Source of the DNA: Mycoplasma crocodyli MP145
Lineage (GTDB): Bacteria; Bacillota_I; Bacilli_A; Mycoplasmatales; Metamycoplasmataceae
Assembly: GCF_000025845.1 (NCBI RefSeq)
Contig: NC_014014.1
Span: forward strand, 124,001 to 188,000
Reading direction: 5' to 3'
Length of the DNA: 64,000 nucleotides
In this document: positions 18,492 to 48,551 of the stretch, one piece after another
How the letters are laid out: each line of letters opens with the position of its first letter
Numbering within the stretch: the stretch's first letter is position 1
The notes under the pieces: model-generated
What the model saw: only the letters and a program-made list of their open reading frames with translations
Databases searched by the model: none
Told to the model about the DNA's origin: nothing
Made by a program: the position numbers and the translations under genes

Positions 18492-20543
18492 TTATCCTTC
18501 AATTTTAATTTTTGTTAAGATCTCTGGTTTGTTATAGTAACTTAATTCATGTGCAAATGGTGTGTTTGTTTTACCTTCAGCAAAGTTTGTTGAATCGGTT
18601 GAATACTTGAAATGATTAATCATAACTTCAAGTAAATCACCACCTTCATAATCAGTTGTTGCTTTCTTATTTTCCATGAAGTTTAACATTTTATATCCGT
18701 CTCCACCAGCTAAAATAAAGTCATTTGTAACAATTGTATATGTTTCTGTTTTATTTATTTCTTTATCATGTATTTTAATTGTGGATTCATCAGCTTCGTA
18801 TGTGTAAACTTTTTTACCATCTTTGATGGTTTCTGTTTTCTTAATTGTAAATGAAACGTTTTGTGAAAATTGTGGATATGCACCAGATTTAACCTTTGAA
18901 GCACCATGTTTAATAGCATCGATTAATGTTTGACCATCTACTCTTACTGCTGCAATACGGTTTCCAAATGGCAATACTCCAAGAACATCACCTCTTTTTA
19001 CATCACCTACTGGTAAATCAGCACGAAGTCCTCCACCATTCATTAATCCAATCATTTTATCTTCTGAATAGTATTTATCAAAATCCTTTGTATCTTTTTT
19101 AGCCTTAGCTAATTCATCAGCAATAGCATTTGCTGCTAAAACTCCTAAGTTTGTTTGTTCAACTCTTCCTCTTCAGAACTCTATACCATCTACTTTTATA
19201 TTTTCAATATGTTTAAAGTGAACTGTGTTTTTGAATGCTAAAACATTATTAACTTCACCAAATTTTTTAGTTAAAGCAGCGATTAGTTCATCAACTTTTT
19301 TGTTTTCTTTTCCATGTGAAGCGATTTCAACTTCGTTAATATCTCTTTGTACTTGACCAAGATTTTCAACTATTTTTCCTGTTTTTTTATCAACTAATAA
19401 GTCTATTTCACTTAGATATTTTGTATAACATTCAGTTTGTGTTAATCATGATTCTTTATTTTTTTCTAAATCAACTTTTGTGTGCGAGTGTCCATCGATT
19501 GTTAAATCAACTCCTGTTGCGTTATCTGCAAAGTATCTTGAATCTCATTCAACTTGATTTCTTCCTACTCCAAGGTGCGTTAAAGCAATAATGAAATTAA
19601 TTTTTTCTTTATTTTCAATTTCTGTAACAATTTCTTTTGCAGCTGTAACTGGATCTTTAAAAATTACGTCCTTAGAATTTCTTGGGTGAGATGTAATTGT
19701 TGTATCAGGTGTTGTTATACCGATTAAAGCAACTTTAAATCCGTTTGCTAATGTAACAACTTTATATGGTGTAAAAGGTCTTGTACCTTTAACTCCTTCT
19801 GGCATTGTGTCTTTATAAACAACGTTAGCTGATAAGAAAGGCATCTTGTCTTTTGTTTGTTTATCAATATTTATCATATGTTCAAGCCCAAAATCGAATT
19901 CGTGGTTACCAATGGCAATAGCGTCATAATTCATTTCTTTAGCAACAAGACTAATTGTTACTCCTTTGTCTGAATCGTTCATTGGAAGTCCTTGAATTAA
20001 ATCACCTGCCGAAAGAAGTAAACTGTGTTCTACATTTTGCATGAATTTTGCTAATGTATCCATACCAGAAAAGTTATTATATTTTCCATCATCGAATACT
20101 AAACGACCGTGTTCATCATTTGTGTTAAAAATTTTAATTGTTTGTGTATCGCTTTTAGCTTCTAGTTTATTTACCTTAACTAAAGCTTTATTAATTTCTT
20201 CTCTTAAAGGTGCGACAATTTTTGACTTTTCAGCAACAAATTGTTTTCTTTCTTTTTGGAGTGCTTCTTTTTTTGTTTTATCTTTTTCTTTATCAATAGC
20301 TTTTTTCTTAGCAGCTAATTCTTTAGAAAACGTTAATAATTGAGCATTGTAATTTCCCATAGCATCTTTAAATTCAACTCTTGCAGCATCTAAGGCTTTC
20401 TTTTCTTCTGCTGTCATTTCATTTGTAGAAGGAGTTACAGGTTTAACTGGTTTATTTTTATCATCACAAGCTGCACTAATTGTAGCTGGTAATATAACAA
20501 GAGGAGCTATAGCTCCTACAAGCATAAGTTTTTTAATTTTCAT
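18492..20543 (-). CDS. 5'-nucleotidase / cyclic phosphodiesterase-type lipoprotein
   Basis: Surface-anchored UshA-like enzyme expected to hydrolyse nucleotides outside the cell, feeding nucleoside uptake in an organism without de novo synthesis. It has 683 residues. A signal peptide with lipobox ISAAC (Cys26) is followed by a Lys/Glu-rich coiled-coil-like region (residues about 44-128). The metallophosphoesterase domain has FNTNDEHGR (about 139-147), LSAGDLIQG (178-186), IGNHEFDFG (211-219), ALTHLGVG and TIDGHSHT. The C-terminal nucleotidase domain has MNGGGLRADLPVG, GVLPFGNRI and LAGGDGYKM. The frame runs through several TGA Trp codons. The ATG has TTTAGGAG upstream. Substrate preference cannot be told from sequence. 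Confidence 0.93.
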
Positions 20544-20630
20544 TTTTTTCTCCTAAATATAGAATTAATTAAATAATTCTTAATAATTATACAAACTTTT
20601 TCAAGACGTATCCTAATAAACTTTAATTGA

Positions 20631-20759
20631 AGAAAAAAAAGCACAATGTGCTTTAAAATATTTCCACAAAAATAATTTTATATTATTGATATGAAGGTGA
20701 ACGATATGTTCCAAGAGCAATTACTCGCAGAGAGTAATAACCATTCAATCGAATGCATT
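20631..20759 (-). ncRNA. Candidate small RNA with own promoter and terminator
   Basis: No gene explains this stretch, yet on the minus strand it has the anatomy of a small transcription unit. A near-consensus promoter lies upstream (next entry). A predicted transcript of about 130 nt contains hairpins CATTC-GATT-GAATG (20755-20742), ATTACTC-TCTGC-GAGTAAT (20738-20720) and GAAC-ATATC-GTTC (20711-20699). It ends in AAAGCAC-ATT-GTGC followed by TTTTTTTTC (20654-20631), a good rho-independent terminator. It does not show the motifs of SRP RNA, tmRNA, RNase P RNA or 5S rRNA. A 32-codon ORF on the opposite strand has no ribosome-binding site. Confidence 0.55.
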
Positions 20760-20765
20760 AATGAT

Positions 20766-20793
20766 ATAATACCACAATTTTGATAATAGTCAA
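20766..20793 (-). promoter_or_regulatory. Promoter of the candidate small RNA
   Basis: On the minus strand TTGACT (20793-20788), a 16-nt spacer and TATTAT (20771-20766). The match to -35 is five of six, and to -10 five of six. The inferred start is near 20759. Confidence 0.55.
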
Positions 20794-21081
20794 TGTTTTT
20801 TTAAAAATAATTTGTTCGGTAATAAATTGAATTGTTAAACAGTATCAAAATTAACAATGATTGACTATATTTATTAGCCTACCACAAAGGTAATTAAGAA
20901 AATAAGGGGCAATTTATTTTGTTGAAATAATGACTTAAATACATAAATATAATTTATGAAATAAGTTCATTTTCATGCTTAAACAATTTTCTTGTAGCAT
21001 GATGACAATGCTATAAGTTTTAATTATGTTTAATATACGAATCCACCACTAATGAAGTGTGTTATTTTTATAATTTATTTT
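20794..21081. other. Non-coding stretch with several inverted repeats
   Basis: No intact gene. Visible dyads: ATTGTTAA (20831-20838) with TTAACAAT (20851-20858); a second TTGACT box on the plus strand at 20859-20864, pointing away from the small RNA promoter; CATAAAT-ATA-ATTTATG (20942-20958), nested in ACTTA and TAAGT; and TCATGCT (20973-20979) with AGCATGA (20996-21002). It may hold regulatory sequence or gene debris; function is not clear. Confidence 0.4.
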
Positions 21082-21526: not shown

Positions 21527-21757
21527 ATGTTAGCACTAGTTATAGCAATGTTAATGGTATCGGTAATTATAATTATCGTTTCTTTTATTATGTCTCCAGA
21601 TTCAAATGGATTTTCAGGAGCGCTTGTTGGATCGGGTGATCTTGATTTATTTAAAACTTCTAAAGAAAGGGGAGTTAAAAAAATTCTTAAATATACAATG
21701 TTTAGTTTAGGCTTAGTTCTTTTAATAGCTGCCCTTGTTTTAAGAATATTTATTTAA
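21527..21757 (+). CDS. secG: Preprotein translocase subunit SecG
   Basis: SecG, the small auxiliary subunit of the Sec translocon, 76 residues with two membrane helices (LALVIAMLMVSVIIIIVSFI and YTMFSLGLVLLIAALVLRIF). Between them is the conserved loop GFSGALVGSGDLDLFKTSKE, a good match to the SecG pattern. It is followed 9 nt later by rnr, the standard secG-rnr pair of Firmicutes. Confidence 0.9.
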   Translation: MLALVIAMLMVSVIIIIVSFIMSPDSNGFSGALVGSGDLDLFKTSKERGVKKILKYTMFSLGLVLLIAALVLRIFI

Positions 21758-37578: not shown

Positions 37579-39085
<1,507 letters not shown>

Positions 39086-39409
39086 ACGGAGTACAGTTGT
39101 TACAAAATGTCACAACACTTACAATAAAGACTAATTAATATAATAAATAAACAAGGCGTCATGTTCTAATGATTTTAGTCCATTAGGTATATCTAGTTTT
39201 GAGAGAACTCTCTCATTTGTTCTTTGAAAACTGAATAGTAAAGAATATTGATATGAACAACGACATCAATAAATAAAATTAACAAAAACAATTTTGTCAA
39301 TTTGTTTTGATCATCGAGAAATTTATTACATCAAGTAATAATTCATTGAAATGTCTTAAAATACATCAACAATAGGAAAATACATAACAATAAATATTTT
39401 GAAAGTTGT
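39086..39409 (+). other. 16S-23S internal spacer, copy 1
   Basis: About 324 bp with no tRNA gene, as usual in this group. It contains a boxA-like TTCTTTGAAAACT (39221-39233), matching the one in the operon leader, preceded by a GAGAGAACTCTCTC hairpin (39199-39212). This probably serves antitermination and RNase III processing. Confidence 0.75.
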
Positions 39410-42300
<2,891 letters not shown>

Positions 42301-42369
42301 AAGATGTCAATTAAGACATTTTAATGAATTATGATTAAGCATCTTTACATTCAGTTTTGAGAGAACAAA

Positions 42370-42395
42370 GTCCAAAATGGACATTTTTTTTATCT
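42370..42395 (+). terminator. Terminator of rRNA operon 1
   Basis: GTCC-AAAAT-GGAC followed by ATTTTTTTT. It is preceded by GTTTTGAGAGAAC, as in copy 2. Confidence 0.7.
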
Positions 42396-42565
42396 TTTTT
42401 TACTATGTATAAGTCGAATAAGATAAATGCTATATTTTTTTGCATTAACATTTTATTTTGAACATAATAATTTTTACAAATTGAAATAAGAAATTATTGG
42501 TAATAAATACATTTTTCAAGCCCTAAAAAGCATTTTTGCTAATTTTTATATATAATTTTATTATT

Positions 42566-43621
42566 ATGGAAAAAATATTTGACAATTTCGGTCTTAATTC
42601 AGATTTTTGTTCTTTTGAAAAGGTAACATTTAGCCCCAATGAACTAAGAGAAATCAAAAAAATAGCAACATATGCTACAAAATCACTTGATAGTGACCTA
42701 CTTGAAGAACAACTAAAACTCATAATAATTAACAAATTAGAAAAATGACCTCATAAATTTAATGAATCTAAAAAGGAAATTGTTATTGATAAATGCATTA
42801 ATACAAATAACTTATCACGCGGTTTTTGTCACATCACCAATAGAATTTTGAAGGTTACACATTTTAAATTTTTAAACGCTTGTGTCAAAAGAATTATTAA
42901 GTCACTTAAATACAAACCTAAAGTAACGTTTGAAAATTGTGTAATGGTTTTAATGAATTCAAAAACTTATAGTAATAAAGGTTTGCTAATTAATGAACAA
43001 GAATATTTATGTGAACGTAAAAATAATTTTTTGAAAGCAATAGATATACCTTATGGTTTTTTTCAATTAGTAGGTGATTTTGCAATAAAAGAAAATTATT
43101 TATATAAAGATACAGTAACCCATTTTTTTAAAAAAGAAGAATTTTCGCAATCTACTGAAATAAGAAATTTATTTTTGGTAATTCCAGCTTTATTAGAATT
43201 GATAGAAAATTTCTATTTAAATGAATACTTTAAAATTGATGACAAACACTTGTGAAATTATATTGAAGATTATTTTTATACACAAAGGAATATAAATAGA
43301 AAGGTTTATATTCCTAGCCCATATGCAATATCTGAATGAATTAGTAATTATTATAAGATCACTCGTGAAGAAGCAAAAATACTTTATTCAAAAATTGCAA
43401 AAGGAATAAAACACGAAAATACACTATATTGATTATTATCATCTTTATACTTTTATTATTTTGACGAATTTAATGACCAAGAGTTTGTAAAATTTTTAAA
43501 ATCAAACTTTATTTACTCATTTACTTTTGAATTTAAGCATTTAAGTAATTACAAAATAGCTAAAATGTTTTTTATGATTCATAAACTTTATTTCTTTTAT
43601 TCTAATGAACAATCAGAATAG
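42566..43621 (+). CDS. Unknown 351-residue protein between the rRNA operons
   Basis: I do not recognise this gene. From the ATG at 42566 (MEKIFDNFGLNSDFCSFEKV) the frame runs through TGA Trp codons to TAG. The protein is Lys/Asn/Phe/Tyr-rich and looks mostly helical, with no signal peptide, clear membrane segment, or known catalytic motif. Internal features are ITREEAKILYSKIAKGIK and several Phe/Tyr-rich patches (FYLNEYFKIDDKH, YWLLSSLYFYYFDEF). It is the only gene in the 1.3 kb separating the two rRNA operons, so it shares their transcriptional neighbourhood. There is no SD near the start, and a TATAATTTTA box stands 17 nt upstream, suggesting an almost leaderless mRNA. Confidence 0.75.
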
Positions 43622-43722
43622 TCCTTTTATTTATGAAAAATCAAATGTAAAACTTTTTATATAATGCTTTTTTAGAGAGTTTTTTTATTAGAAATTTTAT
43701 TTGAAAAAAAATGAAAAAAAAG

Positions 43723-43750
43723 TTTGGATTATTTTTTTTTAGCATATAAT
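43723..43750 (+). promoter_or_regulatory. Promoter of rRNA operon 2
   Basis: TTTGGA (43723-43728), 16-nt spacer, TATAAT (43745-43750), same architecture as operon 1. The initial transcribed region CCTTTTCAAAAGG can form a small hairpin and differs from copy 1. The boxA-like TTCTTTGAAAACT follows. Confidence 0.75.
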
Positions 43751-43825
43751 TGTTAAGCAAGCCTTTTCAAAAGGAAGCATGAGTTCTTTGAAAACTAGAT
43801 ATATACAATATAACATGACAGTCAA

Positions 43826-45332
<1,507 letters not shown>

Positions 45333-45656
45333 ACGGAGTACAGTTGTTACAAAATGTCACAACACTTACAATAAAGACTAATTAATATAATAAATAAACA
45401 AGGCGTCATGTTCTAATGATTTTAGTCCATTAGGTATATCTAGTTTTGAGAGAACTCTCTCATTTGTTCTTTGAAAACTGAATAGTAAAGAATATTGATA
45501 TGAACAACGACATCAATAAATAAAATTAACAAAAACAATTTTGTCAATTTGTTTTGATCATCGAGAAATTTATTACATCAAGTAATAATTCATTGAAATG
45601 TCTTAAAATACATCAACAATAGGAAAATACATAACAATAAATATTTTGAAAGTTGT
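45333..45656 (+). other. 16S-23S internal spacer, copy 2
   Basis: Same 324-bp tRNA-less spacer as in operon 1, with the boxA-like TTCTTTGAAAACT (45468-45480). Confidence 0.75.

Positions 45657-48551
<2,895 letters not shown>

What the first reader, a model, noticed from the sequence alone, without database searches (positions are those of the whole stretch)
20631..20793. Undescribed small RNA candidate on the minus strand
A promoter (TTGACT-N16-TATTAT), a run of three short hairpins and a strong terminator delimit a transcript of about 130 nt in a gene-free region. It carries no signature of the RNAs every mycoplasma needs (SRP, tmRNA, RNase P, 5S), so it may be a regulatory RNA. It lies just upstream of the 5'-nucleotidase gene on the same strand.
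Basis: partly seen in the sequence, partly recalled or inferred. Interest (0 to 1): 0.65.

Follow-up and report, generated by a model that had tools for sequence, protein, structure and literature searches.

The report
Genus-wide unnamed small RNA in Mycoplasmopsis
The candidate is a real small RNA gene: the same three-hairpin RNA, with its own promoter and terminator, was found in 49 of 61 species of the mycoplasma genus Mycoplasmopsis, matches no catalogued RNA family, and its job is still unknown.

Summary
On the minus strand at 20793-20633 there is TTGACT-N16-TATTAT, a run of three short hairpins and a GC stem followed by T8, in a 983-base gap without genes. The window alone is only mildly unusual (fold z = -2.85; promoter-like sites no commoner than chance). 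Relatives settle it. The sister species keeps the RNA at the same place with compensated stems. Covariance models then found it in 49 of 61 Mycoplasmopsis genomes, beside different genes, each time after a TATAAT-like box. On 45 distinct sequences, 96% of stem cells pair and 195 are double changes that keep the pair (0 of 500 shuffles reach this). It is a stand-alone RNA gene, not a leader of the 5'-nucleotidase gene. No Rfam 15 family matches, and nothing credible appeared in 20 genomes of other genera. The most conserved part is single-stranded: C(C)UUUC right after hairpin 3, then AAUAAU. In 22 of 45 sequences it reads CUCCUUUC, the letters of the 16S anti-Shine-Dalgarno tail. A trans-acting RNA pairing with ribosome-binding sites is therefore my best mechanism (about 0.3). 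The window's own copy fits this poorly (CACCUUC). Expression was not tested.

The parts
20788..20793 (-). -35 element TTGACT
   Evidence: with its spacer nearly identical to the promoter of a tRNA-Ile gene in relative G034
20766..20771 (-). -10 element TATTAT (TATAAT in most relatives), preceded by TG
   Evidence: columns 1-6 of A14 are 84-100% conserved
20633..20760 (-). small RNA, about 127 nt; start inferred from the -10 box, end from the terminator
   Evidence: model hits at 20630-20760 minus; family alignment
20742..20755 (-). hairpin 1 (CAUUC/GAAUG)
   Evidence: 4 of 5 pairs show double changes across 45 sequences, 100% of cells paired
20720..20738 (-). hairpin 2 (AUUACUC/GAGUAAU)
   Evidence: A-U to G-C and U-A to C-G already in the sister species; all 7 scored pairs covary in 45 sequences
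20699..20711 (-). hairpin 3 (GAAC/GUUC)
   Evidence: all 4 pairs covary in 45 sequences
20693..20699 (-). pyrimidine-rich single-stranded segment CACCUUC (C(C)UUUC in most relatives), proposed pairing site
   Evidence: conserved columns 118-123; 22 of 45 relatives carry CUCCUUUC
20682..20687 (-). AAUAAU, near-invariant single-stranded element
   Evidence: columns 131-136: two invariant U and one invariant A, the rest 80-93%
20655..20679 (-). A/U-rich hairpin 4 before the terminator, present in many but not all relatives
   Evidence: read by eye; a longer alternative pairing with 86% of cells paired is
20633..20654 (-). intrinsic terminator (7-bp stem, T8)
   Evidence: relatives read here end in a different, compensated GC stem with a T-run
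18492..20543 (-). neighbour: 5'-nucleotidase lipoprotein gene, separate unit downstream
   Evidence: PF02872, E 1.7e-30

Best explanation
A stand-alone, probably constitutively transcribed small RNA gene, member of an uncatalogued RNA family that is near-universal in Mycoplasmopsis. Shown: three hairpins under selection for pairing, conserved -10 box, own terminator, changing neighbours, no Rfam match, no detected member outside the genus. Inferred: the RNA acts in trans; the hairpins hold a single-stranded pyrimidine segment (C(C)UUUC) and AAUAAU open, and the pyrimidine segment pairs with purine-rich ribosome-binding sites (GAAAGGAG) of mRNAs and so tunes their translation or stability, as the UCCC-type small RNAs of Gram-positive bacteria do. 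The confidence given is for a conserved trans-acting RNA that works through this segment; pairing with Shine-Dalgarno sites in particular is about 0.3; that it is a real RNA gene and family is about 0.97.
For: Sister copy, same place, E 1.5e-23. Hits genus-wide, weak ones checked by reading. Covariation on three alignments; RNAalifold returns the same 16 pairs and an unbiased scan of all column pairs ranks the three stems highest. Neighbours differ. Own terminators. 22/45 segments contain CUCCUUUC, and 28/45 pair with GAAAGGAGGU better than 95% of their own shuffles; median -11.2 against -6.2 kcal/mol; the 16S 3' end in this window reads ACCUCCUUUCUA.
Against: The window's own segment (CACCUUC, -7.6 kcal/mol, 19% of shuffles as good) and those of its nearest clades (CACUUUC, CACUGUC) pair poorly with a Shine-Dalgarno sequence. 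Part of CUCCUUUC is the 3' arm of hairpin 3, so its letters are also set by that stem. The shuffles ignore kinship. No transcript, target or partner protein was tested.
Confidence: 0.55

Rival explanations
1. A housekeeping RNA that works by binding a protein or the ribosome (scaffold, decoy or sequestration), with the conserved single-stranded C(C)UUUC and AAUAAU as the protein site.
For: Near-universal, mostly single copy, -10 box close to consensus and a promoter like that of a tRNA gene; AAUAAU is near-invariant and pairs with nothing in the consensus structure.
Against: No partner known; half the family carries letters that match the anti-Shine-Dalgarno tail, which a protein site alone would not call for.
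Confidence: 0.33
2. A Mycoplasmopsis form of an RNA already described elsewhere in mollicutes, such as the abundant MCS4 RNA (about 125 nt, said to resemble U6) of Mycoplasma capricolum, known to me from memory only.
For: Similar length and stand-alone gene.
Against: Its sequence and paper were not in reach. The family models find nothing credible in nine genomes of the family f6, three of them from genus g15, nor in about 1.04 Mb of one g15 genome searched again with another model and a motif scan.
Confidence: 0.07
3. A strongly diverged version of an essential RNA (SRP, tmRNA, RNase P, 6S).
For: Near-universal in the genus.
Against: No such Rfam model matches even at permissive thresholds. 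The rest of the genome was not searched for the standard copies.
Confidence: 0.03
4. A 5' leader or riboswitch of the 5'-nucleotidase gene.
For: Same strand, directly upstream, in this species and its sister.
Against: Ends in a terminator; in other species the same RNA stands beside unrelated genes, also facing away from it.
Confidence: 0.01
5. Chance arrangement of promoter, hairpins and terminator in A+T-rich DNA.
For: Promoter-like sites are at the chance rate.
Against: Covariation and distribution.
Confidence: 0.005

Closest known systems
UCCC/C-rich-motif small RNAs of Gram-positive bacteria (Staphylococcus RsaE, Bacillus RoxS; from memory)
   Same: Short stand-alone RNA, hairpins with an unpaired pyrimidine stretch complementary to Shine-Dalgarno sites, intrinsic terminator.
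   Different: Here the stretch lies 3' of a conserved third hairpin, is C(C)UUUC and not UCCC, and is followed by AAUAAU; no sequence relation found; targets unknown.
Rfam SpR08_sRNA (RF02443)
   Same: Best permissive Rfam match over this stretch (29.4 bits, E 0.0076 in a 977-base search).
   Different: Opposite strand, far below the gathering score of 80 and E 0.49 in the larger search: chance.
MCS4 RNA of Mycoplasma capricolum (from memory)
   Same: Small abundant stand-alone mollicute RNA of similar length.
   Different: No detectable family member in the related genomes searched; its own sequence could not be compared.
Putative small RNAs of Mycoplasma hyopneumoniae, M. flocculare and M. 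hyorhinis (PMC5088518)
   Same: Predicted mycoplasma small RNAs.
   Different: That paper reports them as specific to each species; this family spans a genus and has covariation support.

Membership tests
New Mycoplasmopsis small RNA family defined here (models R1-R3) | Covariance-model match of the window copy | tested here: met
   R2: 117.2 bits at window 20630-20760 minus; it was a training sequence, but its sister and 47 others were found step by step
New Mycoplasmopsis small RNA family defined here (models R1-R3) | Three compensated hairpins | tested here: met
   96% of cells paired, 195 double changes, 0/500 shuffles
New Mycoplasmopsis small RNA family defined here (models R1-R3) | C(C)UUUC and AAUAAU after hairpin 3 | tested here: inconclusive
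   Window copy has AAUAAU exactly but CACCUUC in place of C(C)UUUC
Any Rfam 15 family | Score at or above the gathering threshold | tested here: not met
SRP RNA, tmRNA, RNase P RNA, 6S RNA | Match to the family's covariance model | tested here: not met
Cis-acting leader or riboswitch | Constant association with one downstream gene | tested here: not met
UCCC-type trans-acting small RNAs | Unpaired C-rich motif complementary to Shine-Dalgarno sites | tested here: inconclusive
   Met in about half the family (22/45 with CUCCUUUC), weak in the window copy
UCCC-type trans-acting small RNAs | Demonstrated mRNA targets | not testable with these tools
   needs pull-down or mutant transcriptomes
MCS4 RNA | Homology to the M. 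capricolum RNA | tested here: inconclusive

The most novel reading that the evidence does not exclude
A genus-wide, structured mimic of the 16S anti-Shine-Dalgarno tail: an abundant RNA that competes with the 30S subunit for ribosome-binding sites and sets translation globally in wall-less bacteria that have few transcription factors.
Probability: 0.2. Interest if true: 0.82.

Novelty: new variant of a known kind. Interest (0 to 1): 0.62.

Why it matters
Mycoplasmas keep almost nothing that is not needed. An RNA retained in at least 49 of 61 species of a genus that includes M. bovis and M. agalactiae, with strict selection on its stems and two unpaired motifs, must do something useful; yet it is absent from Rfam and turned up in none of the papers found. 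The alignment and model make it directly testable and would let annotators label it in dozens of genomes.

Tried and rejected
DNA comparison across 60 relatives gave mostly short A+T-rich chance matches; one hit overlapped only the promoter and proved to be a tRNA-Ile promoter. An open frame on the opposite strand (start near 20691) suggested a transposase remnant; reading the sister sequence by eye, the frame meets a stop, and the longest sense frames are 0-30 aa and inconsistent. R1's weak hit L056 was dropped as false from its appearance; L058-L060 and L062-L065 were not pursued. Weak R3 hits in G092 and G084 lie inside long protein genes (topoisomerase- and Tex-like by eye) and the one in G046 has no family features. 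R2 could not be run on the whole genus: several requests failed, so R3 was used on chosen genomes. For the outgroup test about 1.04 Mb of genome G059 was taken as stretches. The strict motif scan finds only 26 of 44 known members, so its negative in G059 is weak. The literature search found no description; most subscription papers are not held.

Full report
WHAT IS THERE. On the minus strand the window shows TTGACT (20793-20788), 16 bases, TATTAT (20771-20766), then RNA sequence from about 20760 to a 7-bp stem with T8 ending near 20633. The gap between the 5'-nucleotidase gene (18492-20543 minus, PF02872) and secG (21527-21757 plus, PF03840) holds no long reading frame. Folding gives -26.2 kcal/mol, z = -2.85. 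Promoter-like sites are at the chance rate, terminator-like sites above it. From the window alone the case would be open.

RELATIVES. The window lies in a 934,379-base genome (that length is, from memory, that of M. crocodyli MP145). Of 61 genomes of the genus, G060 gave a DNA match of 77% over 148 bases, E 1.5e-23, upstream of the same nucleotidase gene, with a different lipoprotein gene inserted on the other side before secG. Five stem pairs already differ on both sides and still pair. A model of these two sequences (R1) found seven further convincing copies and a weak one (G014) that later proved good. R2 added six in eight more genomes (G065 weak, accepted after reading). R3, which also holds the -10 box, added 30 of 38, each read by eye, and three more weak ones were confirmed by reading. 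Total 49 of 61. Seven genomes gave nothing with R2 or R3 (G034, G013, G067, G016, G069, G008, G004) and five were searched only with the strict R1 pass. Names come from an exact pattern scan of 84,980 species, which returned only Mycoplasmopsis felifaucium, agalactiae, gallinarum, bovis, Mycoplasma simbae and Mycoplasma sp. CSL7475-4.

STRUCTURE. On 45 distinct sequences the 16 pairs of hairpins 1-3 are 96.0% standard, 195 cells carry double changes (shuffled mean 50.7), the covariation score is 0.724 against 0.204, and no shuffle of 500 reaches it; sliding the partner by 1-3 columns drops pairing to 31-51%. This alignment was fitted to the model, but the MAFFT alignment A13 shows the same (99.4% paired, 10 of 16 pairs with double changes), RNAalifold predicts the same pairs, and a scan of all column pairs ranks stem pairs first. 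The terminator stem covaries too. Conserved letters outside the stems are the -10 box, AUG before hairpin 1, UNCU before hairpin 3, C(C)UUUC after it and AAUAAU.

A GENE OF ITS OWN. The copies whose flanks were examined lie next to unrelated genes: PTS EIIC and ftsY, trmD, ruvB and an RNA methyltransferase, trigger factor, an EF-Tu-type GTPase (probably lepA), lacI-type regulators. Each of the 16 read in full ends in a terminator-like stem with a T-run of its own. The window's promoter is nearly identical, -35 through -10, to that of a tRNA-Ile gene in G034, which hints at strong, steady expression (inference). No reading frame is conserved.

MECHANISM. The invariant unpaired segments are the likely working parts. 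The 16S 3' end in this window is GGAUUACCUCCUUUCUA. In 22 of 45 members the segment is CUCCUUUC, letter for letter the anti-Shine-Dalgarno core; 28 of 45 pair with GAAAGGAGGU better than 95% of shuffles. I therefore favour pairing with ribosome-binding sites in trans. Steps shown: structure, conservation, complementarity in half the family. Steps inferred: expression, pairing in the cell, effect on translation. Against: the window's own clade has weak complementarity. The chief rival is a protein- or ribosome-bound housekeeping RNA.

LIMITS OUTSIDE THE GENUS. R3 gave no credible hit in 20 genomes of other genera and families of the order, and about 1.04 Mb of one of them searched again with R2 and with a motif scan gave only chance-level hits. 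The RNA changes fast, so distant homologues may be missed. Whether it relates to the MCS4 RNA of M. capricolum, which I know from memory only, could not be tested.

VERDICT. A real, uncatalogued small RNA family, near-universal in one genus of minimal bacteria. The kind (small structured trans-acting RNA) is known; this family, as far as could be checked, is not.

Noticed in passing
L137 170-259 and 2308-2397 (genome G028): Two copies of the RNA about 2.1 kb apart, with two lipoprotein-like genes between them, the larger resembling an exonuclease/endonuclease-type protein by eye: a local duplication, the only second copy accepted.
   Followed up: partly
L061/L070 (G080), L071 (G065), L120 (G031), L125 (G070), L127 (G079), L128 (G082): In one branch the RNA lies just upstream of a gene that starts like a lacI-type regulator (PF00356 confirmed only in G080), a conserved locus within that branch.
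   Followed up: partly
L008 1489-1541 minus (G034): The promoter of a tRNA-Ile gene is almost identical to the window's small RNA promoter from -35 to -10, spacer included.
   Followed up: partly
window 37580-48551: Two 16S-23S rRNA pairs in tandem on the plus strand; no 5S rRNA was found in the window at Rfam's gathering score.
   Followed up: no
L057, L066, L067, L069, L053, L055, L068, L103-L105: In a large subgroup the fourth hairpin has a UGCG-type loop and is followed by a further conserved stretch (UUGUCUUAUG or CUUAUAUGUUAAU) before the terminator, so their transcripts are longer (about 150-170 nt).
   Followed up: no
window 20991-21017 plus: A second terminator-like hairpin in the same gap on the other strand, with no gene assigned to it.
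   Followed up: no
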